Source of the DNA: Styela clava
Taxonomy: Eukaryota; Chordata; Ascidiacea; Stolidobranchia; Styelidae
Assembly: GCF_964204865.1 (NCBI RefSeq)
Contig: NC_135250.1
Location: forward strand, 4,464,001 to 4,528,000
Reading direction: 5' to 3'
DNA length: 64,000 bases
Made by a program: the position numbers and the translations under genes. The notes below the pieces were generated by a model that worked only from the letters and a program-made list of their open reading frames with translations, did no database searches and was not told where the DNA came from. Shown one piece after another: positions 30,956-59,579 of the stretch (its first letter is position 1; every line of letters begins with the position of its first letter).

Positions 30956-31058
30956 ATGAATCGAATGCTATTTGCTACGGTCATTATTTCAATGTTATGC
31001 TTTGAACGAATTGAAGCTGGTATTTAGTTTGTGACGCCAGAGGAAAACGAAACACAAG
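30956..31058 (+). pseudogene. Broken signal-peptide first exon
   Basis: The first member of the + strand array. An ATG at 30956 (also in frame at 30944) opens a hydrophobic leader (MLFATVIISMLCFERIEAG). A TAG follows at 31025-31027. After the stop the same frame gives an acidic tail (TPEENETQ) and a phase-1 donor at 31058, exactly as in intact members. It is most simply a first exon killed by a nonsense change. Confidence 0.55.
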
Positions 31059-31343
31059 GTAAAAAAGTTGAATTCACGCAAGACAAATCGAATTGGCTCG
31101 TTTCTAGCAAATATGTTCATGAGAAACATGAGAGCAGTTCTCAGACATAGTCGTGCAATGGTACCAGTACGGTAAAACGGTTGGGTTAAACCATGGCTTG
31201 ACTTATATTTAAAATGAGTAAAATAAAACATATAGCCTGTTAACGGACACAAATATCACTTCCAACAACAACAATCATTCCAACAGCATGCATTTAGCAA
31301 TGAGATCCATAGGTTCATTTCGTATCCAATAAGTTACAACAAA

Positions 31344-31450
31344 TGACGTAAATAATAGGGAAACATTTCCACTGAGGCAGATAAACAAAAATCCGGTAAT
31401 GCGTGCCGGAATCATTTAATGAAAAAGGAAATATAAAGCTTGCATAAATA
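31344..31450 (+). promoter_or_regulatory. Putative promoter of first exon at 31553
   Basis: TGACGTAA at 31344-31351, CCGGTAATGCGTGCCGGAAT at 31393-31412, and the TATA-like CATAAATA at 31443-31450, about 100 bp before the ATG. The middle motif recurs before other first exons on both strands. Confidence 0.5.
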
Positions 31451-31552
31451 ACAGAAAACGAGGGATACTAAAATGAAATATTAACTGTTAACCGAGACGT
31501 TTCCTCTTGAGAAAGCCATCTTATACAGAGATAGCATAAATGCTTAAGCAAA

Positions 31553-31664
31553 ATGAATAGAAAGTTATTTTATTCAAGCATTATGGCAACAATATGCTTG
31601 GAACTTTTTGTAGCAATTGATGGACTTGGAGGCAAGTTTATGTGGGACATAGACGTGACTGAGG
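31553..31664 (+). CDS. Alternative first exon: signal peptide plus Trp-bearing tail
   Basis: ATG opens a hydrophobic leader (MNRKLFYSSIMATICLELFV) followed by GLGGKFMWDIDVTE. It ends with one base of a Gly/Glu-type codon before GTAAAT (phase 1). The nearest downstream exon in the same phase is the mini-exon at 31975. It belongs to the gene 1 array, or is the first exon of a lost gene copy. RNA data would be needed to show use. Confidence 0.55.
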
Positions 31665-31974
31665 GTAAATATTTAATTAATAAATTTAAATAAATAGTTG
31701 AGAGTAGTCGCGCTTACTCTAAGTCAGTGTTTCCCAGCCTATGGGTCGCGACCCGAAACTGGGTTATCTGAAAAACCTGATATTACTAAATTTATTTTCT
31801 AGTTGCCTAGATTTTATTGTTTATTTTTTCATTTGGTATGGAAGTGTTGCTCAATAGTAATTATATACATGGGAAGTATCACAGCGTAAAAACTTAGCAG
31901 CATTTATTTAATTGGAAAAGGTCTTGTGACTCTATAAATTGTATCGATTATTAAGTCCTACATTTTTTTTTTAG

Positions 31975-32022
31975 AGCAAGATGACGACGCAGATGTTCTG
32001 AAAGATGTAGACGATGCATGGG
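31975..32022 (+). CDS. Acidic phase 1-1 mini-exon
   Basis: A 48-bp segment between TTTTTTTTTAG and GTACG, phase 1 at both ends. It encodes EQDDDADVLKDVDDAWG (end residues completed by the neighbouring exons). Very acidic, with one Trp just before the junction Gly, like the tails of many first exons here. Confidence 0.5.
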
Positions 32023-32528
32023 GTACGTTTTTTTGATTAGACGAGTTCAGGCAATAAGAATCTTTATAAATATTTTTCCACTTCAATTTTGTGTCCTTTC
32101 AATATGAAATCGCAATTTCATGTACAGTACATGTTAAACCGCTACAAGTCGTTAAACACTACGTTGTTGTGATTTCTCAGTCAGGTTGATCAGGTGACAA
32201 ACACTGTACGATTTGGTAACCGTTTGGAGAAGCGTTCCAGTTTGTGCCAAAACCCTGGTGTGTTTTATTAACGCTCCACTCTTGCGCGAAGTTTTTTAGC
32301 TTTAGCATACAACGAGAAATAATATCATTACATTTATATTGTATATCAAAAGTCAAATTTTCATTTGAAAGAGTAAGAACAGGGGTATGCAACAGGCGGG
32401 TCATTTATATGATTTATTTCAGTGATGCATATATATATTATATATAGTGTGCACTGTGCAGTTGTTTTGATCCGTCCCGCAATTATACGTTCAAAAACAT
32501 TTCAATAATTATTTTCCGACATGGGTGA

Positions 32529-32588
32529 TATGAACCCGGTAGTGCGTGCATGATTTGTTGAATAAATAAGGAAGTTGGTTCTTCCGGG
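32529..32588 (+). promoter_or_regulatory. Putative promoter of first exon at 32657
   Basis: TGAACCCGGTAGTGCGTGCA is followed by GATTTGTTGAATAAATAAGG and then GAAGTTGGTTCTTCCGG. Almost the same order of blocks precedes the minus-strand first exons at 55754 and 59579. The paired GGAAGT...CTTCCGG blocks resemble facing ETS-type sites (inference). Confidence 0.55.
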
Positions 32589-32656
32589 ATTAAAAAAAAG
32601 CTGGAATATAGAGACAATTTCATTGCAAATTGGTGATGTATGATTGCATCGTCAAC

Positions 32657-32768
32657 ATGGGTTCTCTGTACTATTACGAAAATGTTATTGCATTAGTATG
32701 TTTGAATATTATTGACGTACTTAATGGAGAAGATTTGTCGTCATCAGGATGGATAGAAGTAAATCAAG
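32657..32768 (+). CDS. Alternative first exon, 'MG-NVIALVCLN' type
   Basis: The leader contains YYYENVIALVCLNIIDVLNG, then EDLSSSGWIEVNQ, and the exon ends in phase 1 before GTAACT. It matches the minus-strand exon at 59579-59465 (NVIALVCLNMIVVLAG) and has the same 112-bp length as the broken one at 55754-55643. ATG 32657 is chosen because those exons start there; an in-frame ATG at 32636 also exists. Confidence 0.6.
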
Positions 32769-33416
32769 GTAACTTGAACTACAAATTTGGCAGTGGCATT
32801 TCGTCTGGTTGGTGAATACTATCAAATCTTGTATAAATCGGAACAAATAGTGAGATTGGAACTTAAAATAAAATTGGGCAGCGAAATAGTTGTGTCGTTG
32901 TCTACTCTTAATACGATCAAAACCTATATGTATTGTAGATAAGTGAAATATTTTTATTGTATAATAGCAAACAAATTAAGCAGGACAGGTAGAGCCAGAG
33001 TTTAACATTTTTACTTGTATTTATTTCAAATATTTCTGTCAGCCTCATGGAATTCGTTTTTTGTGTGCTTTGACGTCATAAAAATTTGCGCACCTTGTGG
33101 CGGTTCCGCGACCGCATATCAGCCAGCACAACTCGTGCTCAGCGAACGTCGGCGGATCTCGTGCTTAGCGAAAGTGGGAAGTTTTTTTTGTGAGGAACGG
33201 TAGACTGCGGTACCTGATCTGGTAATATGGAAGTGACTCGGATCAGTTAGTATTTCAATTCACGTTGAAACTGAATCATGAAAAATGGATCATCGTCACA
33301 GAACCTGAAAAAGCTATGACAGCCCATGTACCGTTACCCTGATATATGTACCGTACCGGCAAGTTACCGCTTAAGCCGTCTCCATATATCTGAGCATAGC
33401 TCTCTTGATGTTTTAG

Positions 33417-33464
33417 AATTTAAAGTTGAAGATGAAGATGTGTTAACATGGGCAGTTAAACCAG
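33417..33464 (+). CDS. Acidic phase 1-1 mini-exon with Trp
   Basis: A 48-bp segment between TGATGTTTTAG and GTAATG encodes EFKVEDEDVLTWAVKPG with phase 1 at both ends. Same length and style as the mini-exon at 31975. Confidence 0.5.
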
Positions 33465-37985: not shown

Positions 37986-38095
37986 CGAATAACGTAAATC
38001 TCGTGAAAAATTCTGCGTCGTTGTCAATGAGCAACTCCGGTAATGCGTACAGGAGGATTTGGTGACTTAGAAAGGAAATGAAATTCATGCAAATA
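37986..38095 (+). promoter_or_regulatory. Putative promoter of first exon at 38184
   Basis: CGTCGTTGTCAATGAGCAAC leads to CCGGTAATGCGTACAGGA (from 38037). GAAATTCATGCAAATAGCAG sits in the TATA-like position near 38080-38098. The same blocks in the same order precede the exons at 39987 and 41780. Confidence 0.5.
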
Positions 38096-38183: not shown

Positions 38184-38301
38184 ATGATTTTGAAATTATT
38201 GTTTATGAGTATTGTGGTAGCGGTATGTCTGAAACCCGATGGAGCCGAAGTTTTGGCTGGAGACCAATTTTGGAATTTGATATCGGGAGAAGAAGCTCCA
38301 G
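38184..38301 (+). CDS. Alternative first exon, 'KLL-VAVCL' type
   Basis: 118 bp. The leader is MILKLLFMSIVVAVCLKPDG, followed by a tail with DQFWNLISGEEAP, and a phase-1 donor (GTGAAA). It is the same length as its close relatives at 39236 and 41780. No mini-exon was found before the next first exon. Confidence 0.6.
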
Positions 38302-39062: not shown

Positions 39063-39155
39063 TGACGTAAATCTTTTTCGTTGTAGCTGGTGAGAATTTC
39101 GGGTAATGCGTACAGGAATCGGTAACTTAGGAAGGATATGAAATTTGTATAAATA
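39063..39155 (+). promoter_or_regulatory. Putative promoter of first exon at 39236
   Basis: TGACGTAA (39063-39070), CGGGTAATGCGTACAGGAAT (39100-39119) and TATAAATA (39148-39155), the last 88 bp before the ATG. This is the clearest TATA-box version of the shared arrangement. Confidence 0.55.
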
Positions 39156-39235: not shown

Positions 39236-39353
39236 ATGACTTCGAAATTGTTGTCTGCGAGTATTATTGTAGCAATATGCCTAAATATTCATGGAGCCCA
39301 AGTTTTGACTGGATTCCAATTTTGGGACTTGAGTGCGACAGAAGAAGAACAGG
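39236..39353 (+). CDS. Alternative first exon, 'KLL-VAICL' type
   Basis: 118 bp. The leader is MTSKLLSASIIVAICLNIHG, then a tail with FQFWDLSATEEEQ, and a phase-1 donor (GTAAAA). It is close to the exons at 38184 and 41780. Upstream in-frame codons exist but the start is set by alignment with its relatives. Confidence 0.6.
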
Positions 39354-39820: not shown

Positions 39821-39924
39821 TGACGTAAATCCTGTGAAAACTTTTCCGTCGTTGTTGATGAGCAACTCCGGAAATGCGCCGGGGATTTGGTGACTTAGAG
39901 AAGGAAATGAAATTTGTACAAATA
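39821..39924 (+). promoter_or_regulatory. Putative promoter of first exon at 39987
   Basis: TGACGTAA (39821-39828), CCGTCGTTGTTGATGAGCAA, CCGGAAATGCGCCGGGGATT (39868-39887), and TTTGTACAAATAGCAG near 39912, about 70 bp before the ATG. Confidence 0.5.
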
Positions 39925-39986: not shown

Positions 39987-40074
39987 ATGAGTACAGTAAC
40001 TAAAGCCTTGGCTAATTTGGTGCTTGTGATTCTAATTGAAAACGACAGGAAGGCACAGGCTGCTGAACCATTTG
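39987..40074 (+). CDS. Alternative first exon, 'MSTVTK...PFG' type
   Basis: 88 bp. The leader is MSTVTKALANLVLVILIEND, then RKAQAAEPF and a phase-1 donor (GTAATA). It closely matches minus-strand exons at 51724 (VKAAAPFG) and 52593 (VEAAAPF), also 88 bp. The tail lacks the Trp seen in most other first exons; the next mini-exon (40870) supplies one. Confidence 0.6.
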
Positions 40075-40869
40075 GTAATAGTTTAATATTTTATTGTAAT
40101 ATTAGTCATATAGTAAACTATATTTGGGTGAGCGAACACGTACTACTTCTTTTAACAAAATCTTCCTCTCGAATCTGTACGATTTAAACCTTACTTGATG
40201 TTTTGTTCGCTCTCCCCATTCAATATTCAGTTTTATTTATTTTGTTTTTATCGATTATTTTATCGTCTATTATGCTGATTATGTAGTCGAAATAAACCTA
40301 TACTTATAATTAGATATATATTTATATGTTCATTGAATATTCTCGGCGACAACCCTGGGCTGCTAAGTTGAGTTGAACTTTTTATTACGTTCGAAATTTT
40401 AGGAGAAGATTTCCAAAATAACTAAAACTAATTTTACACAACAATTATTTGCGACGCTTAATGATTCAAAACTTATACATCTTTAAATTTTTTTCGGAGA
40501 TTAATTCCTCCCCGGTCATTTTTTTTTGAATCAAGAAAGTTATAGGATTGGCGCAACGTGTTAAGACAAGCTTTAAGCTTAGCAAGCTTCCTAATCGCAT
40601 CGCTGATTCCTTTGGGCGATCTCGAATCCAGTCAGTAGAGATGATAGCTAACAACCCGTTGCCAAAGCTTGATTAACTCAACCACTGGTCTATTATGAAT
40701 TCTTTCACCAAAATCATACATCTGAATGGGTAGACTAATTGACATTGTTATACCTGACCTTGTTAGGAAATGGGACAGGGCGTAACGGGAACGGTCGGAG
40801 ATATAAATGAAATATCCTATTCCAATTAATTATTTTACAAAATATTACGATAAATTATTCATTTTGTAG

Positions 40870-40908
40870 CAGGAACTGGAAACGCTGAACTTGAAGTATG
40901 GGCGCCAG
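40870..40908 (+). CDS. Phase 1-1 mini-exon with Trp
   Basis: 39 bp between TTCATTTTGTAG and GTAAAA, encoding AGTGNAELEVWAPG. It resembles the minus-strand mini-exon at 57411 (VEVEVWKFVVNPG). Confidence 0.5.
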
Positions 40909-41270: not shown

Positions 41271-41371
41271 TGACGTTAATCTAGTGAAAACCTTTTCCGT
41301 CGTTGTTAATGAGCAACTCCGGTAGTGCGTGTACAGGATTTGTCGAAGGGAATGAAATTTGCACAAATTTC
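41271..41371 (+). promoter_or_regulatory. Putative promoter, now cut off from its first exon
   Basis: TGACGTTA (41271-41278), CCGTCGTTGTTAATGAGCAA, CCGGTAGTGCGTGTACAGGA (41319-41338) and TTTGCACAAATTTCAG. The expected ATG lies at 41780, about 320 bp farther than in its relatives, because of the transposon at 41429-41744. Confidence 0.5.
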
Positions 41372-41428: not shown

Positions 41429-41744
41429 CAGGGCTACTCAACTATTTTTATCGAAGGTCCGCAAACAAAACTTCAAAATTATTTGGGTCCGGTCTTTCCA
41501 GAAATGATATTTCGGCATCCTTAAACGAGCACTTCCTCGACCGACTAATGATAAGTAGCAAATTAAAATTGTTTATTATGGTGTTATAGTTCTTTTCGTA
41601 TATATTCAAAACTATGAAAGTCATTTTATAATAGGAAATTCAAAAAGTGGGGCTAATGATCCAAAATAAATAATTAGGTGCGGTCCAAATCCAATACTCG
41701 AAAGGTCCGGATTGGGACCGCGGTCCGCCAGTTGAGTAGCCCTG
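41429..41744. mobile_element. hAT-like MITE inserted between promoter and first exon
   Basis: Ends CAGGGCTACTCAACT and AGTTGAGTAGCCCTG are perfect 15-bp inverted repeats. The flanks share CTAT but a clean 8-bp duplication is not seen. Removing it would restore the promoter-to-ATG spacing of sister exons. Confidence 0.75.
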
Positions 41745-41779: not shown

Positions 41780-41897
41780 ATGATTTCGAAATTGTTATCT
41801 GCGAGATTTATTGTAGCAATATGCCTGAACATTAATAGAGCCGAAGTTTTGGTTGGAGCCCAGAAATTTGGGAATTCTCGTTGGGAAGATACTACAG
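41780..41897 (+). pseudogene. First exon with lost splice donor
   Basis: It has the 118-bp frame of the exons at 38184 and 39236: leader MISKLLSARFIVAICLNINR, tail with AQKFGNSRWEDTT. The donor position reads ACAG|GATAAA instead of G|GTAAA, and the frame then stops at TAA. With the MITE upstream it is probably dead. Confidence 0.6.
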
Positions 41898-42107: not shown

Positions 42108-42213
42108 ATGATGTTAATGTTTTATTGTCGGAATATTATTGCAATGATATGTTGTAATATTGTTGTTGTGATGCCGGGACAATGGGACGAAGCAGACCCA
42201 GACTTACCCATAG
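42108..42213 (+). CDS. Alternative first exon, 'MMLM' type
   Basis: 106 bp. The leader is MMLMFYCRNIIAMICCNIVV, then MPGQWDEADPDLPI, and a phase-1 donor (GTAAAT). It is paralogous to the exon at 42574, 466 bp downstream. Its upstream sequence keeps only part of the promoter blocks (TACGGAATTACACAA). Confidence 0.55.
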
Positions 42214-42431: not shown

Positions 42432-42513
42432 CCGGTAGTACGCACAGGATTTATCGAAAGGACATGAAACTTTACGGAATTACACAACCCGGTTTTAGTG
42501 AATCAGTATAAAA
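42432..42513 (+). promoter_or_regulatory. Putative promoter of gene 1 proximal first exon
   Basis: CCGGTAGTACGCACAGGATT (42432-42451) is followed by TATAAAA at 42507-42513, 61 bp before the ATG. Confidence 0.5.
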
Positions 42514-42573: not shown

Positions 42574-45036
42574 ATGATGTTAATGTTGTGTTGTAAAAAT
42601 ATCTTTGCAATAATATGTTTGAATATTGCTGTTGTGAACTCCGAATGGAAAATAGCAGGCATCGATATACCGCCAGGTGAATTTATAAAGATGAAAAAAC
42701 TTTTGATTTTCATTATTGTTGTTTCACTCTGATATACGAATTGGACGCTAAACGATTCTGTTCTCAATGTTGCAAAAACTTGGTTGCAACATTTCGAACC
42801 CAAGCAAATTTTTAAAGTTTAATGTTCGATAAAGCAAAAATATTTCCTGTTGTCAAGTAAATGTTAAACGATTACAAATTAACCAACATCGCTGTACCTT
42901 TGTATTAGAAAAATTGAATAAAATAAATATTAACTATTTTGTATCCAGCAGGAGCGGCAGCATGGGCGAATGCGTTGTCTGGAACTGACGATTTTGATTA
43001 CCTTTCACAAATAGCAAAAATACAATACGGCTCACCGCTAGATGTCGCCCTACAAAATCTCCGCACAGAAGGAATGAAACTTACACAAGTAGACCTAGTA
43101 GAATTGATATTGTCAACATCAACAGGTATAGGATGTTGTTTTTCTGTTTCTTAAATTATCTTAATTTATTTTTGCTCCGTTATGAATGTAAAACTGCTAA
43201 GGTAATCTACTAACTATCAGAAATTACAAACGTAATTATTAAAACCCCATTCTAAACTATAAGAGGGCTATGCTCAAATATATGGACACGTAGCGCCACC
43301 TAATGGCAATAATTTTGATGACGTCATAGCGAAAAAAAAAGTAATAGCCTTGTGGAGAAAAATTTTATCTTTAACCACTGAAAATTTCAAAGCAATTGGT
43401 CCAGTATTCGAAGAGAAAAGCGATTTTTTAATGATAATGACGAAAGAAAATAACAATAACAACAAAATTTTGAAACGATCGTTATGGCCACTAAACGTGT
43501 CCAATAACGTGAGATCTACCCCAAGCTGGTACATTAGCGTTGTACCATAGAGATCTAGCGCACAATAGCGTGAAATCTATTGCACTAGAGGTCTACCGCT
43601 GCACTTTCGATCCCTAGTGCATATCCCTTATTTTTATACATTTGATTAATAAGCGTTTTATAGCATGGGTCTGATCCTTTATGTTCCCCAGCTTTTTGTT
43701 TCAGTGGTGTTTCCAAATTTACGGGGTGGTAGATATTTTGTTATTAGTGATAAAACTATTTGTAACTCACAAAATTTTGTTATGTATTTGACTTATCATC
43801 TTCAGTAGAATATGAGCCACTTTCCAGGGTATTCATATACAATTTATTTACGTTAAAAATTTAAGTATGGTGTCACACCTAAAAATTTTAGGGGGGAGGG
43901 GAGCGGGGTTATTGTAGGGAAATTACTGGTCTGACTTAAACTTTATCTCTGCACTCTACTAGGCATCTGCATTTGCCGGTAGATTTCATGCCATAGTAGC
44001 ATCAACTTTTAATGGCATTTTATATTGGGCAGTTTGGATAACGAATGTTTCACGAAATTGAAGATTGACAACTTTTTTACTTATTTCATCAAGGCCAGTG
44101 GTTTTGGAACTTACAGAAAAATCATTTACAAATAACTGGGTGAAACCGCGGGTCGTAATAGGCATAGATAATAAATGGGACTGCGTTATAGAATTTGCAG
44201 CGCAAAATCGCAAAGATATTGGAATCACCCACACATACCAGATTAAACTCAATTAAAAACTATTTTTGTGGGCCACACATCATTCAAAATCGGCACTTCT
44301 CCACGGGCCACACAATTTTTCCTTGCGGGCTGCATTTGGCCTGCAGATTGCACACCCCTGATCTAGGTTGTCTTATATTACAGTGAACGATATGATTACT
44401 CAGAAGCAAAACATGGTTGAATACTCTACTGCTCTAAGGAACTTCAATTGCGTTCACTTCCCTTGCAAATATGATGGAAATTGTGAGCTTATACCACTCA
44501 TTGATTTCTCCGACAAATTAAAAGAAAGCCTGAAGATACAGACTATGAACGAAATCAGCATCATTATGGGACAGGCTGAATTTTTTAACTTTTATAAAGA
44601 ATTTGGAAGCACTGACCTTGGAACGCCCGAGGGCATTGAGACTGTTGTACATGCCTATTTATGGGATACTTCAGACACCATCAACCCTATGTTACTTAAT
44701 ATGCTGGCTTACACAGTTTCACCATGGATCAGCGACGACTGGATGCCAGAACTTGAAATTGATTGGAACACGAATGCATGGAAGCTTATAAATTTCATCG
44801 AGTTGTTCATAGCTCAAAAGATCATTGCAATGAGTTTGTCGGATTTGGCAAGATATGAAAGTATTGAAACGGTTGCAGCGATGTATCAACTCGTAGGAAA
44901 AGCTATTCGTTGTTCCTGTGCTCTGGGATTTGGAGGAACACATTGTGAATTTTGTGTACTTACTGATGCTTCTTTAATAGCAGATAATGAATTTGAATAT
45001 CATGGAATCAAACCGATTAGTGCTAAAGTTGGTTGA
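42574..45036 (+). CDS. Gene 1: secreted protein with split EGF-like domain (minimal model)
   Basis: Exons 42574-42676, 42949-43125 and 44384-45036 join in phase 1 to give 310 residues. The family is not recognised. Exon 1 is a signal peptide (MMLMLCCKNIFAIICLNIAV) with tail EWKIAGIDIPP. Exon 2 is 59 codons, predicted helical, with QIAKIQYGSPLDVALQNLR. Exon 3 has CVHFPCKYDGNC, then 142 residues without cysteine, then CSCALGFGGTHCEFC. The spacing C-x4-C-x5-C and C-x-C-x8-C is that of EGF domains, so an EGF fold may carry a large insert between its third and fourth cysteines; a final C follows two residues later. The protein ends EFEYHGIKPISAKVG. AATAAA lies at 45076-45081. Genes 2 and 3 have the same three-part plan. 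Eight further first-exon copies and three mini-exons lie upstream on the same strand; all the intact ones are phase-compatible, so exon 1 may vary. Secretion is likely; the role is unknown. Confidence 0.75.
42949..43125 (+). CDS. Gene 1 helical exon (phase 1-1)
   Basis: 177 bp between TTTTGTATCCAG and GTATAG. It encodes a piece starting AGAAAWANALSG, then IQYGSPLDVALQNLRTEG and ending STSTG. It aligns over most of its length with the gene 2 exon 48631-48816 (IQYGSPLNEALTNLRTEG), and its last half with the gene 3 exon 62677-62826. Confidence 0.75.
43260..43500. repeat. Dispersed repeat shared with 37440-37660 and 49490-49960
   Basis: AAAGTAATAGCCTT.TGGAGAAA and AAAGCAATTGGTCCAGTATT occur here and at 37440-37520 nearly unchanged. 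GCTCAAATATATGGACACG near 43271 recurs at about 34585, and in altered form at 49495 and 50275. The repeat sits in gene 1 intron 2. The class is unknown. Confidence 0.6.
44250..44362. mobile_element. Right end of a hAT-like element, close to gene 1 last exon
   Basis: GGGCCACACA repeats and TTGCACACCCCTG, like the right end of the element at 7351-7688. It ends about 20 bp before the acceptor of the last exon (44384). The left end was not located. Confidence 0.4.
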
Positions 45037-46806: not shown

Positions 46807-49800
46807 TCAACCAACTCTAGCACCAATCGGTTTGATTCCATGATATTCAAATTCATTATCTGCTATGATGGAATCATCGGTAAGAACACAAAATTCACAA
46901 TGTGTTCCTCCAAATCCTAGAGCACAAGAACAACGAATAGATTTCCCAACTAGATCATACATCGCTGCAACCGTTTCAACACTTTCATATCTTGCCAAAT
47001 CTGACAAACTCATTGCGATGATCTTTTGAGCGATGAACAACTCGATGAAATTTATAAGTTTCCACGCATTTGGGCTCCAATCTAATTCAATTACTGGCAT
47101 CCATCCATCGTTGATCCATAATGACATTGTGTAACCCTGACCACTAAGTCTAACATTGTTACTATTGACAGAAGTAGCCCATATATAGTCATTTACAACA
47201 TTCTCTATAGCTGCAGGATCAGCGACAACGGTTCCAGACAAACTGTTGAAAAATGATTGAAAATCACTCAGTCTCATGGCCATACTGATTTCGTTGAAAA
47301 CTTGACCTCTCAGTGATTCTTTTAATTCATCAGAGAAATCAATGAGTGGTATAAGCTCACAATTCCCATCATATTTGCAAGGGAAGTGAACGCAATTGAA
47401 GTTTCGTAGATTGGTAGAGTACACAACCACCTTTTGCTTCTGAGTAATCATATCAACTGTAAAGTAAGGCAGATGAGACAGGTCATAAGAAGACAAGATC
47501 AAGAAAACAATAATGTTCATTTTGAAAACAATTTTCATCAAAATTTACGTATGGAACATCAATAAATTTTTACTTTATTGTATGATGGTTTACAATTTAT
47601 AATATTTATTATATATTATATTTATTTATACGAGCTATTGCTTTATGGGTTAAGACTTAATCATATAGAAATATATACTCAATAATTACAGATGTAATGA
47701 TAATTAGTTTTAATATGTGGCAACTATGGGTTAGGTTCAAAGGTCATTTTAGAGTTGTCTAGAAATTCCCGCTCTCAGATAGCGTGGTGTGTGCTTCTGT
47801 GTCCGACATGATCTGCGTATGATGCTTTGATTACCCAGTACAAGTTTTTGCAATACAACATCCTGACTTGTTAATCAGTCTGTCAGTGCTTTTAGAAGAA
47901 GAATCACACAACCCAGCGATGCATGAGAACAATCTTGGGCATCCAGATGTGTGTGAACTAATGTTATATGGAGATAACTAATTTTGTTCGCCTACTTAAC
48001 ATCAAGTTATGTAGAGGGACTGAAGCCTATAGGCAGAGGGTATATTCAATTGACTAACACAGACAATCCCCGAACTCGTAATAGAACTAGAATAAGGAAA
48101 TTCGGAATGAAATTATGGCCTAACCTGATACATTTACTACGGGAATGCACAATCCTGGGGTCTGGTATAGTTTAGTACCACATGTACTTCTAGTTGACCT
48201 GGCTCAACAATTTTTGCATATGTCAATCCTAACCCCCACCTGACTACGTCACCGAAAAATTACGTCATTTCGACGTCACAGTGGCGTAATAAGGTCCACC
48301 GAAGTATGCGGAAGGTCGTCCAAAACGCGCAGACGATCACCCGAAATCAAACAATCAATTTCTCCCGTTTTCTCGTCACAACGATCACGATAGGAGAGAG
48401 ATCGCCGGCTTTAGCAAGTTTGTTATCGGCGGCGCAGATGTCATTTCGGGCGATATTAATTATACTTTGGCAATCCCTATGACGTGATGGGGACGTCGTA
48501 GTGACTTAATTTTTGTATGGCATAGTCAGGCGGGGGTTAGGAATAGCATATGCAAAATTTGTTATGCTACGCCCACCGGAAGTACTTGTGGTACTAAACT
48601 ATACTAGACCCCAATCTTGTGTGTGCATACCTGTTGATGAGAACAAGAGCATGTCAATTAAATTCATTTCTGAAAGTTGTGTGCCTTCTGTGCGAAGATT
48701 TGTCAGAGCTTCATTTAAAGGTGAGCCATATTGTATTGCTGCTATTTGTTGAGCATAAGTCAAATCAGCAGCTGCTCCTAGCTTCTTGCTCCAGTCGTCC
48801 GGCACAGCAGGGGCTGCTGAAATAAATAGTAAATATGGTAATTTGCTTTTATTTTTAAACATAAAATAGCTAAGAGATCACTTCATTTATTCATCTAAGT
48901 ATCAGAACGTATCACTGGGCGGACAAAATTTTTCCGTGCTGGCAATATTTAGAACTTTTAGTTGCCGGTCTAGGTCAGTTTTGAAAAGAGCTAACAACTC
49001 TAATGCACAGATTTATAGAGCAAATGGAGCCATAACCGGTTACCGACTAAGTTGTTCCCGCAAAATGGCAAGGACTACGGCATTCATTTCACATGTAATT
49101 GTTCTCTGCAGGATTTGAACCCGCGAATTTTTTATGTTTACTTGGCGGTGCGATCTATATTGCAAACGCAATATTGAGTATTTTTATATGGGTTGATCTT
49201 CTGTATGTTTTGACATACATCCTAAATATTACAAGTTGCAATAGAAAATTTTACCTAACTTCAACAGGCTCCGCTCTAATTTTAGGTGTAAAATATAAGA
49301 ATCTTTATTTAAAATTGTAATCATGTATATGTTGGCATGTTTATTTTCGTCTATTTTATTGAATGCACCCAGGTCTCGGTAAATTAAGTTACCTTCACAT
49401 GATCATGTTCTCAGTTAAAATGCAATAATAGCCGTACGTATTTGCGGTTTTTCTATCATCGTATATGCCATATGGTATATTAAACAAGAGAACATTGCAA
49501 AAATATATGAACACAAAGGCCAACACTAAATATCTTGCACAAAATTTCCCCAAAAATCATGTCCTGTAGGACGCGGTAACTGCGGAAGGCCTGCAGTAAC
49601 GGCACACGGACTGTTCTGGCCTTCAATGTCCTGTGACGATGATGATTCGTGCGTTCAGTCTCAATATTGAACGGAATATCAAATGTTTCAAATCACAACT
49701 GTAGTATCAAATCTTTTACTGATTTACGCTGAGCGCGATATCCGCTGATTGCGATGGCGAAACCGACACACGGTGCGTAATTTTTAATTTGGATGACGTC

Positions 49801-51724
49801 ATTACACAAAATTTCAAAGCGATAAACGAATTAAACGGAGCCCAGAGAAATTTTTAAAATAAGTAAAAGCAATAGCCTTCTAGCGACAACAACAATCTTT
49901 ATTAAACGAATATTTCAAAACAAATGGCCCAATAGTTCAGGAATTTTTTTTCACAACCACTAGCTAAGAAGGAAGAATTCTAATACCAATATAAGGTACT
50001 CCCGTAGTATGTGAACCAATATGGCGGACACCAGAACGTAGTATGTGTACCAGGTTAGGGTTAGGCCATCATTTTATTTCAATTTTCCATTTTTTAGTTC
50101 TATTACGAGTTCGGGAACTAGCCTAGTGGCTCCCGTAGTATTATACCTGAAATTGTGGCCTAACCCTAACCTGGTACACATACTACGTTCTAGTGTCCGC
50201 CATCTTGGTTCACATACTACGGGAATAACTAATATAATAACAGAACGATCCACAGGTTCACTTCGTGCCAAACAAGAGAACAACGCGCAAATATATGGAT
50301 ACGGCGATATCGGGACCGTTACAAACACACGCCATTCGGTAAGCACAAGTTACCCGGTGCGATGGCACAGTGTTTTGTTCATGACGTGTATTAATCCGGG
50401 AAAGATTATGATTCACTGAAGAGGATATTTTAAAAATATATACGGTAAGTTATAAGCCACAGCATTCTAGTGAGCACTTTCATAATTAGATCTTGAAAAG
50501 TAGAAACTAATAGGTCCAGTTAATAAGAATCATACATTGTAGAAAGTCTATGCATGTCACTTTCTTACATACATAGTTCATTTTCTCGTGATTTACGTTT
50601 GTTATGTAATAAAATTTTACTGAACAATCAATTTTTTCTGTAATCACCACATAAGAACCGCAGCCACGATTTTGTTTTTGAAATCGAGTTTGTATAAAGT
50701 ATTGTCATGATCTTCTTTTGAGTATTGTCTCACATACTGAAATTGATTTAAAAGTCATTGTCCGATTTTACATTGTTTCTCATTTTATTGTGTTCTTTTG
50801 ACTGTTTTTGCCAGACGGGCACGTACTTGTACGTTTTTAACTCTTTTATTAAGTTATGCCCGTATTCCAGGTCGTCTGCATTTTGTTTGTCCGTTTGTTG
50901 TTGTTTTGTTTCTTTCAGAGTGACCAAAATAAATTGATTGATTGTCTCAATAACAACAGCACGAACAACAACGATTAATATGCCCGTGCAAAAGTATATT
51001 GGTTCAATTTTAATTTCCTATATTAGACTGGTATAGCTCTGAAGTCTGAGTGATTTTTTCGTTCTTTAATATTTTTTGTGAATTTTATGTCCAGCGCGAG
51101 TTTTTCTAGTGTTTATTAGAAGCCTTCTGTAGTATTACCTGCTGCTTCTTCCCATCCTCCGAATGTTCCTCCTTGTTCAGCTAGAAAGATAATTTTTATG
51201 GTAATTTGAGAAATTGCCGTTTGAATTCGTAATTTCTCTTTATATCGGAGAGATGAAAGGCCGATAAAACGATCTACCGTCCTGCCAAGCCTGGTATGGG
51301 AATGAGAAATTGATATATAGCCTAAGACCAAAAGCATATTTTTGGTAGGACTCTTTTGCTTTCGAACAAGCCCCAACACAATCGGCCCCTGATAACTAAC
51401 GACGCGTTAGTAGCTACTAATATTTGGAAGGAGCGGAATTTTTCTGTTTCGGCAATGCTAACTCTATTCATTGTACCCAAGGCGGTGTGGTCGACACGCG
51501 ATTTGAACCCGGAATTTTATCCTGTAATGTCAGCTAAGTTAGGCCTAACGCGCTACACAATTTACACAGGATTCCAACACGCGAACCTAAATATTATCTT
51601 TGAATATTAATTTATATTACAAATGCAACATTTTACCAAACGGAGCTGCCGCCTTTACCATTCTATCATTTGTGTTTAGAATCACTATCAGTAACGTTTC
51701 AAGAAGATAAATTACCAAACTCAT
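46807..51724 (-). CDS. Gene 2: secreted protein with split EGF-like domain (one splice model)
   Basis: Exons 51724-51637, 51180-51139, 48816-48631 and 47456-46807 join in phase 1 to give 321 residues. The signal peptide begins MSLVIYLLETLLIVILNTND and ends KAAAPFG. A 14-residue mini-exon adds GGTFGGWEEAAG. The helical exon has IQYGSPLNEALTNLRTEG. The last exon has CVHFPCKYDGNC, a 142-residue insert and CSCALGFGGTHCEFC. Compared with gene 1, the first 25 or so and last 90 residues of the last exon are nearly identical, but about 80 residues between differ strongly. The last exon can also be read upstream to ATG 47541 through a hydrophobic stretch (MNIIVFLILSSYDLS), an alternative unspliced start. 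Five more first exons and four more mini-exons lie farther upstream (to 59579), so the 5' end shown is one choice among several. Function unknown. Confidence 0.7.
47937..48145. mobile_element. MITE, CTCCCGTAG family
   Basis: GGGCATCCAGATGTGTGTG to TTTACTACGGGAA with the family interior. It lies in gene 2's last intron, directly beside the element at 48155. Confidence 0.7.
48155..48613. mobile_element. Element with about 95-bp inverted ends, next to a splice donor
   Basis: The left end CTGGGGTCTGGTATAGTTTA and the inverted right end (TTGGGGTCTAGTATAGTTTA) stay similar for about 95 bp, sharing GTACCACA.GTACTTC and CCTAACCCCC.CCTGACTA. The middle is GC-rich and non-coding. The right end lies about 15 bp from the donor of the gene 2 helical exon (GT at 48630-48629). 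Possible 4-bp flank AATC on both sides. Confidence 0.7.
48631..48816 (-). CDS. Gene 2 helical exon (phase 1-1)
   Basis: 186 bp between TTATTTCAG and GTATGC. It encodes a start with APAVPDDWSKKLG, then IQYGSPLNEALTNLRTEG and ends SSTG. Clearly homologous to gene 1's 42949-43125. Confidence 0.75.
48862..51138. other. Intron of gene 2; repeats only
   Basis: It contains a tRNA-like fragment with GGATTTGAACCCGCG near 49112, a copy of the AAATATATG/AGCAATAGCC repeat (49490-49960) and the foldback MITE 49997-50226. No exon-like segment with phase-1 borders was found. Confidence 0.45.
49997..50226. mobile_element. Foldback form of the CTCCCGTAG MITE
   Basis: The left arm (TACTCCCGTAGTATGTGAAC, GGCGGACACCAGAACGTAGT, GTACCAGGTTAGGGTTAGGC) reappears inverted at the right end. 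The arms are about 70 bp and the whole could fold into a long hairpin. Each arm contains two nested copies of the MITE terminus. Confidence 0.7.
51139..51180 (-). CDS. Phase 1-1 mini-exon with Trp
   Basis: 42 bp between TCTTTCTAG and GTAATA, encoding AEQGGTFGGWEEAAG. It lies between the nearest gene 2 first exon and the helical exon. Confidence 0.55.
51490..51570 (-). repeat. tRNA-like SINE head
   Basis: On the minus strand GTAGCGCGTTAGGC resembles a pol III A box and GGGTTCAAATC a B box, at tRNA-like spacing. The region shares patches with 48915-49130. It is not a clean tRNA; a tRNA-derived SINE is likely. Confidence 0.4.
51637..51724 (-). CDS. Alternative first exon, 'MS-V...APFG' type
   Basis: 88 bp, phase-1 donor (GTAAAA). 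Leader MSLVIYLLETLLIVILNTND, tail RMVKAAAPF. It is the partner of + strand exon 39987 and minus exon 52593. Upstream (51820-51880) a block including GCGGGATATACAAGAGAAG is shared with the sister exons. Confidence 0.6.
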
Positions 51725-52047: not shown

Positions 52048-52089
52048 CTGCTGGTGCCCCCTCTAATACAAGTCCTCCGACTGCCCCTG
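52048..52089 (-). CDS. Gly/Ala-rich phase 1-1 mini-exon
   Basis: 42 bp between TATCGCTTTAG and GTAACA, encoding AGAVGGLVLEGAPAG. No Trp. Same length and phase as the mini-exon at 51139. Confidence 0.45.
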
Positions 52090-52121
52090 CTAAAGCGATA
52101 AGGTATTATGATAGTTAGAAC

Positions 52122-52433
52122 ATTTTTCATTGATAAAAGATTATATATTATTTGTTTCTGGATAACCCAGGTCAGGTATGGTGGTCAAGATACACTAACT
52201 TAGACTGGAAACCCGTAACCGACTAGTGAACAATTCATTTGAACTCGAAAATAGGACTTAATATATAATATTCCAATATTTTTCATTGATAAAAGATTAT
52301 ATATTATTTGTTTCTGGATAACCCAGGTCAGGTATGGTGGTCAAGATACACTAACTTAGACTGGAAACCCGTAACCGACTAGTGAACAATTCATCCGAAC
52401 TCGAAAATAGGACTTAATATATAATATTCCAAT
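52122..52433. repeat. Tandem duplication, 2 x 156 bp
   Basis: 52122-52277 and 52278-52433 are nearly identical (about two differences), each running from ATTTTTCATTGATAAAAG to ATATAATATTCCAAT. A recent duplication in an intron of the minus array. Confidence 0.9.
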
Positions 52434-52505: not shown

Positions 52506-52593
52506 TGAACGGAGCTGCCGCCTCCACCATTCCATCTTTCGTAATTAGAATCCCAAATAAAAACGATACAAGGATTTTGGTTACTGAACTCAT
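52506..52593 (-). CDS. Alternative first exon, 'MSSVTK...APF' type
   Basis: 88 bp. Leader MSSVTKILVSFLFGILITKD, tail GMVEAAAPF. The last base before GTAATA is A rather than G, so the junction residue would differ. Flanking DNA is duplicated with the 51724 copy. Confidence 0.55.
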
Positions 52594-54100
52594 ATTTAAG
52601 CCGCCTAACGACTTCTCCACAATAATATTTGATCATAAGCTCCCAAATTGATATCACAAACATCTCAAACCTATACGTCATTCATATTAATCATAATTTC
52701 TCTTGCAAATCCCGTTTCCGTGCCTAGTAGATTCAGCTTTTCCGGTAAATCAACGCCTTTAAACTCATATTTATTGTTTGCAATCTGTGGTTTTAAAGAT
52801 CGGGAAAAAAAAACATTTTGCACGACTCGAGAATTAGTCTCATCACATCCGTTATTTTCCAATAAAAGTAAACCCAACAACAGAACAATGCACAGGGGAA
52901 TTAGCCTATTGGGTAGCCATTGCCATTGCGGTCCTTTGAAAAAATAATGCCTCCTTACATATTATTAACAGCTTGCACATGGCCTGATTCGGTGCGGAAG
53001 GCGTAAAAACGTCGTATATGAAAAGCACGTCAGCCGTGTGCGAAGCGTGCTCCGTTGGTGGAGAATCCTCGTTCTGACGCAACTTTTTTTTGTAATTGGC
53101 AAGATTCAGCGTGACGACCGACTATAATTTAGGGTGAATGCAGATGAGATTTGAAACACTATAAAATTGTAGATCTCAAGAGACTGTACCATATGTAAAT
53201 ATTGGAATTTGAATCCGATTGATACGTAGTTTAAGAGAAAAACACTTTTATTTCAATTTCAACAGCAACACAATGAACAATCATATTTAGCGAAACTAAC
53301 TATAGGCCCATTTTCTGCCTTTGTGGAATATTTTCCTTCTGCTTCCCTAGTTTCGGGCAAAGCAATTTTGTTTGGAAATTATTATATCATCGTGCAAATT
53401 TCATAATTATTATTCCGCAACTGCAGGAAAGCATATTGTACTTACTGGCCAATGCTCTAAGTCCGGCGCCTGCCTCTGCTACCTCGATAACTTATGGTAT
53501 TATACAAAGTTGTCACTGAGAAATTTTTTATATTTCTTCCAAAGAGATGGATTCCAGATTGGGCATGGAATAAACTAACTAGATAATTCTCACAGATCAT
53601 GGACAGTGGCAAAATCCGTAACTGATTAGTTGGTACTTAATCCAACCGTCGACTCAAAAAAGTTTTATACTTAACTCGCAATTAATTGTGCCCACGGAAT
53701 TTGTTCAAAAGTAATAAGGGGTGACATTGTGCGAGTGTTTTGAATGTTTAGGTTTAGGACGATATGCCATTGAAAGACTTTACTGGAAAACAATTAAATT
53801 TTTATCATACTATAAAGGTGTATTATACTTTGTCGGACCAAAAGGCCTTATACACGTATATTTCTAGGTTTGAATACTGCTCGTTTACAACTACTGCTTG
53901 AAAATCTAACTTTATTTAATTATTTGCCAAAAACGCACTATATACTAATTTTGTTCACTTTAATACAGAAGGAAAATCTTTTTCTACAAATTCAGCGAAA
54001 GTAGACATGACATATTTAACTCCAATCCAGGTTTTCAAGTTAAATCTAAAATCTCTTATAACGTATCGTTACCAAATTAATACACTCATACATATATTAC

Positions 54101-54197
54101 CAACGAGGTTTGCCGACTCTGCCACGCTACTTTCTGTAATTGTCATCGCAAGTAATAACATTATCACGATTTTAGAACATAACGTTACTGTACTCAT
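54101..54197 (-). CDS. Alternative first exon, 'MSTVT' type
   Basis: 97 bp. Leader MSTVTLCSKIVIMLLLAMTI, tail TESSVAESANLV, phase-1 donor (GTAATA). Upstream on the minus strand near 54715-54655, GGGAAGTGCGATTAGGAT and GCAAGAGAAATTATGA recall the shared promoter blocks. Confidence 0.55.
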
Positions 54198-55436: not shown

Positions 55437-55517
55437 CTGCTAGTCCTGCCCCGCCGAATCCCAGTGCTATGGCAGTATCGCCCGCATGTGCTTCTAATGT
55501 CGCCGCATCTTCCGTTT
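55437..55517 (-). CDS. Long phase 1-1 mini-exon
   Basis: 81 bp between CGTTTTAG and GTGACA, encoding ETEDAATLEAHAG followed by DTAIALGFGGAGLAG. The second half resembles the Gly/Ala-rich mini-exon at 52048. Confidence 0.5.
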
Positions 55518-55642
55518 CTAAAACGATATGCACACACATTAATCTACAACTTCAATTCTTTGAGTGGCTCACAATACCCTGCATCACACTATCTAAATCT
55601 TCCATCGACCAAATTTTTAACAATGGTAAGAAAGTAAATCAC

Positions 55643-55754
55643 CTAGCTTTTCTTCTAGCTAGTCTGTGAACCAAATTATCCCCCCGCAAGGTACAACATA
55701 AATATTCAAAAATGCCAATGCAACAACATTCGAAAAATTCAATAGAAACTTCAT
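55643..55754 (-). pseudogene. Broken first exon, 'NVVALAFLN' type
   Basis: Leader MKFLLNFSNVVALAFLNIYV, then GGIIWFTD and TAG at 55661-55659. The frame past the stop gives LEEKL and a phase-1 donor, and the 112-bp length equals that of exon 32657-32768. A nonsense change in an otherwise standard first exon. Confidence 0.55.
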
Positions 55755-55819
55755 GTTTCTGATCGCATTATTCAACACCTATTCACAGTAAAACTCTCCT
55801 TATATTTTATCTGTTTTGT

Positions 55820-55882
55820 TTCCGGAAAGTCTCTCCACTTCCCTATTTATTCAACCAATCCTGCACGCATTGCCGGGTTCAT
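55820..55882 (-). promoter_or_regulatory. Putative promoter of first exon at 55754
   Basis: On the minus strand: TGAACCCGGCAATGCGTGCA, GGATTGGTTGAATAAATAGG, then GAAGTGGAGAGACTTTCCGG. The same blocks as at 32529-32588 and 59654-59712. TGACGT lies about 15 bp upstream. Confidence 0.55.
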
Positions 55883-57410: not shown

Positions 57411-57455
57411 CTGGGTTAACCACAAATTTCCAAACTTCTACCTCTACCCCTTGAG
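57411..57455 (-). CDS. Phase 1-1 mini-exon with Trp
   Basis: 45 bp between GTTTTAACAG and GTATTA, encoding AQGVEVEVWKFVVNPG. Resembles the + strand mini-exon at 40870 (ELEVWAPG). Confidence 0.5.
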
Positions 57456-57689
57456 CTGTTAAAACAAAAATTACTTGAGGCGATATAGAAAATCTCCATT
57501 GAAATGGGAATTTTCATGATTATCTTGAAGAGGTTGAAAGGCGATTTGGACAAACGAGAATCATGCCATATCGTCTGGCTAGCCGCCAGAAACAAGACAG
57601 TAAATTGATTTACCTCGGTTTATCATCAATTCAAACTAACCAAGTATTCATCTGAAACTACGACAAAGCTTATGCCTAATATATATTAC

Positions 57690-57725
57690 CTTGTGCTGCC
57701 GATTTCACATCAAATCCTGTGACAG
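57690..57725 (-). CDS. Short phase 1-1 mini-exon
   Basis: 36 bp between CTCGTTTTAG and GTAATA, encoding AVTGFDVKSAAQG. The smallest of the set, so it could be chance; it lies in line between the exons at 57968 and 57455. Confidence 0.4.
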
Positions 57726-57877
57726 CTAAAACGAGATATATTTATTTAAGTAATTCCTTAAGTTTATTTCCCAATGCCCAAGGAGTAAATTTACCCGATA
57801 TTGAGAACATCTGACTTACATTAATTAACACTCACTCCATTAGAATATGAAAAATATATGAAGAAACATTCACCTAC

Positions 57878-57968
57878 CTGCCCAACTAAGACCAGCGTTT
57901 GCTGCAAATAATGTAGAAACCATACATAAAACACTCATTATACCAAGTAAAGTGTTTTCCAGTGCCAT
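57878..57968 (-). CDS. Alternative first exon, 'MALENTLL' type
   Basis: 91 bp. Leader MALENTLLGIMSVLCMVSTL, then FAANAGLSWA and a phase-1 donor (GTAGGT). Minus strand 58092-58070 has ACCCGGAAATGCGTTTAAAAG, a version of the shared upstream motif. Confidence 0.55.
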
Positions 57969-58329
57969 ATTCTTGTTCCTTCAGTGACTGTGCGCAAATG
58001 AAAAAGTAAAATCAGCAATAATGCTATGAATGGGCACGTTTTAAAGTTCGTAATATCTTCCGGTTTCTTTTAAACGCATTTCCGGGTAAAACTAAATTGC
58101 AACTCACGTGAGAAAGTATCCGAAAGAACAACCCCATATCCTCATCGGTATTTTCAGCATTACCGCTAATATATAATTTCATGACCAAAATCAATTTGTT
58201 CTATTGTTTGAAACGAAAACTTCTCCAACCGCCACTAAACACTTGACGCGTTTTTCACGCGAGTGTGGCCGATTTGTCCGACGTGAAATACGCACTGCGG
58301 TGATTTTTTGAATAACAATCAAAATGGTG

Positions 58330-58401
58330 TGGAGACGCCGGGGATCGAACCCGGGGCCTCGCGCATGCAAAGCGCGCGCTCTACCACTGAGCTACGTCCC
58401 C
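58330..58401 (-). tRNA. tRNA-Ala (anticodon UGC)
   Basis: 72 nt on the minus strand, beginning GGGGACGTAGCTCAGTGGTA. The anticodon stem is CGCGC/GCGCG with loop TTTGCAT, and the T arm contains GGTTCGATCC. The acceptor stem GGGGACG pairs with CGTCTCC and includes the G3-U70 pair that marks alanine tRNAs. No intron and no encoded CCA. Confidence 0.95.
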
Positions 58402-58586
58402 AACGAGGTAACTCGTATGGATTATTCCATGTGATAGTTATCGTTATCATTGTTATTTCTTCTGTGATGATGGATCAATCGAATTTGGACTACTTACTAT
58501 TAAAACCAGTAAAATTAAATGAAAAAATACACTGGTTGAAAGTACGCAAAAGACAATTTGAATGAACAACATCAACCAAAAGAGCG

Positions 58587-58652
58587 TGCAGATGCTGAGG
58601 ATCGAACCCGGGGCCTCGCGCATGCAGAGCGCGCGCTCTGAGCTACATCAAA
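58587..58652 (-). pseudogene. tRNA-Ala (UGC) pseudogene
   Basis: It keeps the anticodon and T arms of its neighbours, but six bases of the D loop (GTGGTA region) are missing and the acceptor stem is mismatched (TTGATGT against GCATCTG). A decayed copy between two intact ones. Confidence 0.85.
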
Positions 58653-58779
58653 ATAAAGTGAATGAGAATATTCCGTATGCGGTCAGTAGCATTCATTGAA
58701 TAACGAACGGTAGGCAAAATCGACTGGTTGAAAGTCCGCGATAGGGCAATCTGAATGGATGAAGACAACCAAAAGAGCG

Positions 58780-58851
58780 TGGAGACGCCGGGGATCGAAC
58801 CCGGGGCCTCGCGCATGCAAAGCGCGCGCTCTACCACTGAGCTACGTCCCC
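58780..58851 (-). tRNA. tRNA-Ala (anticodon UGC)
   Basis: Identical over all 72 nt to the gene at 58330-58401. Flanks such as AAAAGAGCGT and CTGGTTGAAAGT are shared between copies, showing local duplication. Confidence 0.95.
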
Positions 58852-59089
58852 AACGGTACATCGTGCCCTGGTTATTTATTATAACAAAATCCTAAGCCAC
58901 TTGTGATCACTTTTGTGTTGATAGATAGTGGGAATAAACTATTGTTCGGATCGCTGGTATTGCTACCTACGTTCCATCTAAGCTAGTCGTTTTCAACCGG
59001 TTCCAATTTGGCTATTGTACAGATACCGATGGAAATTTCCACTTCGACTATTTATTACAATTTACTTTATGTTTTGATTACATTAGACC

Positions 59090-59408
59090 AGTGGTTCCCA
59101 AACTGTTGGTCGCGACCCCGTCCGAAGATTTTCCGGGGTCGCCTAATTTATGCGCACACAAGTGAATAGAATTTGAAAGTTGGAAAGTGAAATTTGTGCT
59201 GGATGGCAGGTACCGTGAAAGTGCCTAACTTCGGATTTTTTAGCAATAACTCGACCATTGATTGTTCAAAATTGCTCGGTCAATTTTTCATGTGGTACTC
59301 AACCTTGTATCAGTGTAGCCGCCTGGTTTATAGCTGTGGGGTCGCGAGTATCTGTAGGCTTTAATTTTATAAAAATTGAGGTTGCGAAAAAAAGTTTGAG
59401 AACCACTG
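59090..59408. mobile_element. hAT-like MITE, 319 bp
   Basis: Ends CAGTGGTTCCCAAACTG and AGTTTGAGAACCACTG. Target duplication CATTAGAC (59082-59089) and CATCAGAC (59409-59416), 7 of 8. GGTCGCGACC lies inside the left end. Confidence 0.85.
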
Positions 59409-59464
59409 CATCAGACGACTACGCCACTATAGCTTTGTACCATTTAGTTTTCAAATAAAATGAC

Positions 59465-59579
59465 CTTGTTTTTCTTCTTGGCCAATTTGATCGCGTTTAA
59501 GATCTGCCCCAGCAAGTACGACAATCATATTTAAACATACTAATGCAATGACATTGGTGAAATAGAACAGAAAACCCAT
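59465..59579 (-). CDS. Alternative first exon, 'MG-NVIALVCLN' type
   Basis: 115 bp. Leader MGFLFYFTNVIALVCLNMIV, then LAGADLKRDQIGQEEKQ and a phase-1 donor (GTCATT). Matches the + strand exon at 32657. The outermost first exon of the minus array. Confidence 0.55.

What the first reader, a model, noticed from the sequence alone, without database searches (positions are those of the whole stretch)
30956..59579. Mirrored locus with two arrays of alternative signal-peptide first exons
Fifteen segments (nine on +, six on -, counting those in the minimal gene models) look like first exons: an ATG, a 20-25 residue hydrophobic leader, a short polar tail and a splice donor. All point toward the last exon of gene 1 or gene 2, and every intact donor leaves phase 1, matching the acceptors of the mini-exons, helical exons and last exons. 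This layout allows many different secreted N-termini on a constant C-terminal domain, as in clustered protocadherin or UGT1 loci but with exchangeable signal peptides and mature N-termini. The alternative is a row of decayed partial gene duplicates.
Basis: partly seen in the sequence, partly recalled or inferred. Interest (0 to 1): 0.9.

Follow-up and report, generated by a model that had tools for sequence, protein, structure and literature searches.

The report
Mirrored arrays of alternative signal-peptide exons
A sea-squirt-like genome carries two mirror-image rows of small start exons, most of them intact and many with a similar stretch of DNA just upstream, all aimed at a shared gene ending, so one gene could probably make many secreted proteins with different beginnings; this still needs RNA evidence.

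Summary
Fifteen first-exon-like segments (9 on +, 6 on -) lie at the stated places; 14 of 15 keep a GT at the expected donor, in phase 1. Twelve are intact; three are decayed.

New evidence favours working alternative first exons over a row of relics. In the better-conserved pairs an island (about 170 bp upstream plus the exon) stands out from unalignable flanks. A motif, CCGGNARTGCGT (up to one mismatch), lies upstream of nine first exons and nowhere else in the window; a longer form occurs 9 times in 376.6 Mb, 5 of them here. Seven of the nine motif-tagged units are intact. No clear remnant of the shared exons was found between units. The five unit types searched matched only this locus; type D did not complete.

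Against: dN/dS is only weakly below 1 and equal in pairs with a decayed member, five donors are weak, several pairs show no upstream island, and no RNA was available. Joining of first exons to last exons is inferred. The layout is that of UGT1 or protocadherin clusters, probably evolved separately in a tunicate.

The parts
30956..31058 (+). first exon D0, decayed (in-frame stop)
31393..31404 (+). upstream motif of D1
31553..31664 (+). first exon D1, intact
31975..32022 (+). mini-exon candidate, phase 1-1
32536..32547 (+). upstream motif of E1
32657..32768 (+). first exon E1, intact
33417..33464 (+). mini-exon candidate, phase 1-1
38037..38048 (+). upstream motif of A1
38184..38301 (+). first exon A1, intact
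39100..39111 (+). upstream motif of A2 (1 mismatch)
39236..39353 (+). first exon A2, intact
39868..39879 (+). upstream motif of B1 (1 mismatch), in an A-type upstream block
39987..40074 (+). first exon B1, intact, weak donor
40870..40908 (+). mini-exon candidate, phase 1-1, tandem acceptor
41319..41330 (+). upstream motif of A3, 461 bases from its ATG
41780..41897 (+). first exon A3, decayed (donor GA)
42108..42213 (+). first exon C1, intact
42432..42443 (+). two-mismatch form of the motif before C2
42574..42676 (+). first exon C2, intact
42949..43125 (+). helical exon, gene 1
44384..45036 (+). last exon, gene 1
46807..47456 (-). last exon, gene 2
48631..48816 (-). helical exon, gene 2
51139..51180 (-). 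mini-exon candidate, phase 1-1
51637..51724 (-). first exon B4, intact, weak donor
52048..52089 (-). mini-exon candidate, phase 1-1, tandem acceptor
52506..52593 (-). first exon B3, intact, very weak donor
53446..53478 (-). mini-exon candidate, phase 1-1, poor acceptor
54101..54197 (-). first exon B2, intact, weak donor
55437..55517 (-). mini-exon candidate, phase 1-1
55643..55754 (-). first exon E3, decayed (in-frame stop)
55865..55876 (-). upstream motif of E3
57411..57455 (-). mini-exon candidate, phase 1-1
57690..57725 (-). mini-exon candidate, phase 1-1
57878..57968 (-). first exon F1, intact
58074..58085 (-). upstream motif of F1
59465..59579 (-). first exon E2, intact, weak donor
59695..59706 (-). 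upstream motif of E2
61487..62996 (-). gene 3, simple relative: leader exon 62996-62918, helical exon 62826-62677, last exon 62079-61487 (second and third bounded by eye)

Best explanation
Two inverted copies of one variable-constant gene. In each copy a row of small units (upstream regulatory block, signal-peptide first exon and, in the short-tailed types, a phase 1-1 mini-exon) lies upstream of shared exons: a helical exon and a last exon with a split EGF-like cysteine pattern. Each upstream block acts as its own promoter. First exons lack an acceptor, so a transcript skips the later first exons and splices its own leader, through mini-exons where present, into the shared exons in phase 1. 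The products are secreted proteins with different signal peptides and different short mature N-termini on a constant C-terminal part; promoter choice decides which is made where or when. Shown: anatomy, phases, conserved upstream blocks, motif, intact frames, no clear constant-exon remnants. Inferred: promoter activity, splicing, cleavage, secretion, function.
For: 14 of 15 leaders with a phase-1 GT. Leader density 8 against 0.31 expected, none antisense. Open phase 1-1 segments 32 of 110 sense, 10 of 90 antisense (overlapping segments, helical exons included). Upstream similarity with flanks at background for the three E pairs, A1-A2 and C1-C2. Nine motif copies in the window, each sense-oriented upstream of a leader; 5 of 9 genome-wide exact long-form copies here, 1 for the reversed control. 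Seven of nine motif-tagged units intact, against 0.2-17% expected per exon under neutral decay. No clear constant-exon remnants between units. E and B leaders on both arms; dS of E1-E2 (0.43) near that of the last exons (0.48).
Against: No RNA. The motif was derived from these same upstream regions, so its nine copies show retention and locus specificity, not independent origin; six of 16 upstream regions examined (D0, C1, B2, B3, B4, gene 3) lack it. No clear upstream island for D0-D1, A1-A3, A2-A3, B2-B4, B1-B3, B1-B4. pN/pS 0.66 (p 0.054) in intact pairs, 0.65 in pairs with a decayed member. Five of the 12 intact exons have donor scores below 0 (B1, B2, B3, B4, E2). The donor and acceptor matrices are generic and recalled, not trained on this genome.
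Confidence: 0.62

Rival explanations
1. The leaders with their mini-exons belong to separate short genes for small secreted peptides with their own 3' ends; only the leaders nearest the last exons (C2 for gene 1, B4 for gene 2) serve those exons.
For: Each unit has its own upstream block, and no RNA links the distant leaders to the last exons.
Against: A translated comparison of the two arms shows the leaders, helical exons and last exons, and no shared terminal exon was recognised in the best 60 rows printed. All placed donors have the phase of the shared acceptors.
Confidence: 0.18
2. A row of relics: partial duplications of promoter plus first exon that are mostly not used and are decaying.
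For: Three of 15 are decayed; pN/pS is near neutral; a further decayed copy of gene 3's upstream region lies at 60751-60894.
Against: Twelve of 15, and seven of nine motif-tagged units, are intact at dS of about 0.4-0.7 to near relatives.
Confidence: 0.13
3. The upstream islands only mark the edges of the duplicated segment, or recent gene conversion, and carry no promoter function.
For: Units are tandem and the motif copies are partly shared by descent; B1 carries an A-type upstream block.
Against: dS of 0.43-0.72 between the intact pairs E1-E2, A1-A2, C1-C2 and B3-B4 is not recent; E pairs and the A1-A2 pair have similar upstream limits.
Confidence: 0.07

Closest known systems
UGT1/Ugt2 variable-constant clusters (vertebrates)
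   Same: [quoted passage not shown] PMC9013439, passage).
   Different: Here the variable exons are about 90-120 nt (signal peptide plus a short tail) with extra mini-exons, in two mirrored copies, and the protein has no UGT match in Pfam. Splicing is not shown.
Clustered protocadherins alpha and gamma
   Same: [quoted passage not shown] here a motif at -117 to -160 for eight units.
   Different: Protocadherin variable exons are large and encode whole ectodomains, and the element binds CTCF; here the bound factor is unknown and the motif is absent from several units.
IgLON genes with promoters 1a and 1b
   Same: Alternative first exons with own promoters encode alternative signal peptides (PMC5288359, passages).
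   Different: Only two leaders, and the mature N-termini are identical there; here the tails after the leader differ.
Schistosome micro-exon genes (MEGs)
   Same: Secreted products built partly from very short exons (PMC10526429, abstract start in a search listing).
   Different: Here a last exon of about 650 nt carries most of the protein and the variation lies in first exons; sequence relation was not tested.

Membership tests
Multiple-variable-first-exon (variable-constant) cluster | Tandem array of homologous first exons | tested here: met
   15 leaders in two arrays, classes A to E with more than one member
Multiple-variable-first-exon (variable-constant) cluster | One set of constant exons downstream, none between the variable exons | tested here: met
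   One helical and one last exon per arm; no clear remnant between units, best stray nucleotide hit E 0.002 on the opposite strand
Multiple-variable-first-exon (variable-constant) cluster | Reading-frame compatibility of every variable donor with the constant acceptor | tested here: met
   14 of 15 donors GT in phase 1, placed by hand; acceptors phase 1
Multiple-variable-first-exon (variable-constant) cluster | Own promoter for each variable exon | tested here: inconclusive
   Conserved upstream blocks and motif for many but not all units; no activity data
Multiple-variable-first-exon (variable-constant) cluster | Each variable exon spliced to the constant exons | not testable with these tools
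   No RNA available
UGT1 or clustered protocadherin by descent | UGT or cadherin domains | tested here: not met
   Pfam scan of the three last exons shows neither
EGF-domain proteins | Match above a curated EGF cut-off | tested here: not met
   EGF_laminin at 14.9 bits or less against 21; seven cysteines invariant in four relatives, split by 143 residues in gene 2
IgLON-type alternative signal peptides | Identical mature N-termini after signal cleavage | tested here: inconclusive
   Tails differ between units, but cleavage sites were not predicted by a dedicated program

The most novel reading that the evidence does not exclude
An invertebrate chordate independently evolved a protocadherin/UGT1-like variable-constant locus whose exchangeable part is a signal peptide plus a short mature N-terminal peptide, with an oriented promoter element found almost only at this locus, so that cells or tissues choose one leader each and add mini-exon combinations, giving dozens of secreted isoforms from two mirrored genes.
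Probability: 0.3. Interest if true: 0.85.

Novelty: new variant of a known kind. Interest (0 to 1): 0.6.

Why it matters
Variable-constant first-exon clusters are best known from vertebrates, and one study calls the Ugt1, Gcnt2 and Ugt2a organisation vertebrate-specific (PMC1885805, passage). A tunicate case with tiny variable exons would show that the design can arise by duplication of promoter plus leader alone, and would allow promoter choice to be studied in a compact 28-kb locus with a built-in duplicate. The rows that my searches listed (titles and abstract starts, at most 12 rows each, open-licence library only) show no such locus in a tunicate; that is not proof of absence in print.

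Tried and rejected
dN/dS as a test of function: too weak, and the same for pairs with a decayed member. A first identity comparison with free end gaps was meaningless and was replaced by global alignment z-scores (that script stopped on its last print statement after giving the numbers used). Strict splice matrices found almost nothing; looser thresholds with strand and phase controls were used. Assembly artefact (haplotype copy) rejected: the last exons are 72% identical in protein and the introns between helical and last exon show no similarity above shuffles. Dispersed mobile-element origin of the units not supported for types A, B, C, E and F, which matched only this locus; the B search found only B4 and B3 and missed B1 and B2, so diverged copies elsewhere could be missed; type D did not complete. 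PDB searches gave nothing significant for the gene 2 last exon (best E 0.11) or the last-exon profile (best E 1.3).
Full report
WHERE IT IS. The window is G000:C1:4464001-4528000 of a 376.6-Mb genome in 379 contigs. A cellulose-synthase segment on contig 9 passes the Pfam cut-off (26.6 bits against 24.7). That a cellulose synthase in an animal-like genome points to a tunicate is recalled knowledge; the organism is inferred, not named.

THE CONSTANT PART. Gene 1 (+) has a helical exon 42949-43125 and a last exon 44384-45036; gene 2 (-) has 48816-48631 and 47456-46807. The last exons are 72% identical in protein; gene 3 (last exon 62079-61487, -) is 31% identical to gene 2. The genome search with the gene 2 last exon found these three and one more place, on contig 19 (36% over 66 residues). 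There I read by eye one leader exon ending in phase 1 and a phase-1 last-exon acceptor (sequence). Seven cysteines are invariant in the four sequences, three near the start and four near the end, 143 residues apart in gene 2. The two groups resemble the two halves of an EGF domain, but no match is significant or reaches a cut-off. The gene 2 helical exon matched only itself and its mirror copy.

THE VARIABLE PART. By eye and similarity the fifteen first exons fall into classes A (38184, 39236, 41780), B (39987; 54197, 52593, 51724 on -), C (42108, 42574), D (30956, 31553), E (32657; 59579, 55754 on -) and F (57968 on -). Donors were placed by hand; 14 of 15 have GT there, in phase 1. Twelve are intact. 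Nine mini-exon candidates (three on +, six on -), picked by eye, and the two helical exons are open in phase 1 with lengths divisible by 3 (for 55517 and 53478 the script allowed only such lengths, so this is not independent evidence). The splice scan at limits 1 and 1 lists only some of them; 57455, 55517 and 53478 fall below it and 51180 appears there with another acceptor. All five short-tailed units (B1 to B4, F1) are followed by a mini-exon before the next leader; of the ten long-tailed units only D1, E1 and the decayed E3 are. I read this as one N-terminal peptide encoded either in the leader exon or in a mini-exon of its own; that is inference.

MORE THAN CHANCE. In 13 control regions (260 kb of strand) the leader scan with hydropathy at least 2.3 and donor at least 0 gave 3 phase-1 hits; the sense strands of the arrays gave 8 in 26.4 kb where 0.31 were expected, plus 2 of phase 0; the antisense strands gave none; four flanking regions gave 2 phase-1 hits in 80 kb. 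With hydropathy at least 1.6 it is 8 against 1.53, with 2 phase-1 hits antisense. Open phase 1-1 segments between splice-like sites are 32 of 110 on the sense strands and 10 of 90 antisense (Fisher p 0.003); with stricter limits 10 of 22 against 1 of 13. These segments overlap and include the helical exons.

UPSTREAM BLOCKS. Global alignment z-scores against shuffles were made for 21 pairs. Between -170 and -1 they are 12.7, 14.0 and 17.2 for the E pairs, 9.4 for A1-A2, 6.8 for C1-C2 and 8.3 for B3-B4; from -500 to -171 no pair exceeds 2.4. Leader codons score 6.7 to 12.4 in these six pairs, tails 3.2 to 9.6, and the first 170 intron bases at most 3.3, except B3-B4 (7.9). A1 and A2 resemble B1 only upstream, so B1 has an A-type block before a B-type leader. 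Several pairs show no clear island: D0-D1 (0.9), A1-A3 (1.5), A2-A3 (2.6), B2-B4 (-0.1), B1-B3 (2.5), B1-B4 (1.9). For A3 a reason is visible: a mobile-element-like insert with inverted ends (about 41429-41744) lies between its motif and its ATG. The intron between helical and last exon scores 24.0 between the genes against a shuffled mean of 23.7.

MOTIF. The motif was found by comparing these upstream regions. CCGGNARTGCGT with at most one mismatch occurs nine times on the two strands of the window (seven exact), each time upstream of a first exon and in its direction; 0.51 are expected from base composition. Distances to the ATG are 117 to 160 bases in eight cases and 461 in A3; a form with two mismatches precedes C2 at 142; D0, C1, B2, B3, B4 and gene 3 have none within 600 bases. 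CCGGNARTGCGTRC occurs nine times in the genome, five of them here (D1, E1, A1, E2, E3), against one for the reversed pattern. Behind the four others a lax scan (donor at least -3, hydropathy at least 1.6) found nothing at two, a phase-0 leader-like frame with a weak donor at one, and a weak phase-1 one (hydropathy 1.81, donor -1.6) at one; I take these as chance, without proof. The copies here are related by duplication, so the count shows locus specificity and retention. F1 keeps the motif in DNA otherwise not alignable to E1 or E2.

SELECTION OR RELICS. At 0.2 to 0.45 substitutions per site a simulated neutral exon keeps ATG, frame and GT in 0.2 to 17% of cases, depending on indel rate. Taking the nine units tagged by the motif, seven are intact (A3 and E3 are not); P is about 1e-4 or less for p of 0.167 or less. 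pN/pS is 0.66 for four intact pairs (p 0.054) and 0.65 for three pairs with a decayed member (p 0.039), so that measure does not separate them. A sensitive search of the window found no clear fragment of the helical or last exons between the leaders: stray protein hits have E of 0.3 or more, stray nucleotide hits include one of 53 bases at E 0.002 near 49361 on the opposite strand and one at E 0.058 near 40078. The duplicated unit therefore probably did not include the constant exons.

HISTORY. E and B leaders exist on both arms in the same order towards the last exons. E1-E2 dS (0.43) is close to Last1-Last2 dS (0.48), while Hel1-Hel2 is 0.95 and B1-B3 1.52. The simplest account is an array that already held E and B types, an inverted duplication, separate expansion (A and C on +, more B on -) and some decay.

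HOW IT WORKS, AND COMPARISON. The layout is that of UGT1 and protocadherin clusters: variable first exons, each with a promoter, joined to constant exons (PMC2819257, PMC1885805, PMC9013439, PMC7811963; passages). The upstream motif recalls the protocadherin conserved sequence element at about the same distance from each start codon (PMC7811963), but what binds here is unknown. Twin signal-peptide promoters are known in IgLON genes (PMC5288359, passages). It works like these, if the inferred splicing is right; it is not a UGT or cadherin by descent. What the secreted proteins do is unknown; variable short N-termini on a fixed body would suit recognition or tissue-specific roles, which is speculation. 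Whether each leader truly joins the last exons needs RNA.

Noticed in passing
60751-60894 and 62989-63130 (-): The upstream region and start of gene 3 are repeated (73% identical) between gene 3 and array 2; by eye the copy at 60751-60894 has no leader-like frame, so it may be a sixteenth, decayed first exon of array 2.
   Followed up: partly
58329-58851 (-): Two tRNA-Ala genes and a degenerate third copy lie inside array 2 between first exons E2 and F1.
   Followed up: no
40870, 42949 (+); 52089, 48816 (-): Four of 12 acceptors checked are tandem (NAGNAG) sites, which could add or drop one residue at the junction.
   Followed up: no
46807-47544 (-): The last exon of gene 2 is open upstream through its acceptor to an in-frame ATG with a hydrophobic start (47538), a possible unspliced leader or just a translated pyrimidine tract.
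   Followed up: no
41429-41744: Insert with inverted ends of a hAT-like kind (label recalled) between the motif and the ATG of A3.
   Followed up: partly
52119-52430: A 156-bp direct repeat, 98% identical, in the presumed intron between B3 and its mini-exon.
   Followed up: no
603-875 and 2312-2596 (+); 15106-16200 and 24198-24908 (-): Neighbouring genes: PRP8 exons (Pfam) and a frame with a sub-threshold glycosyl hydrolase family 6 match; the frame at 24198 looks similar by eye only (no Pfam or PDB hit).
   Followed up: partly
9558, 17523, 22535, 29716, 47942, 63744: A dispersed repeat of about 100-200 bp in at least six places in both orientations, one of them in the intron between helical and last exon of gene 2.
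   Followed up: no
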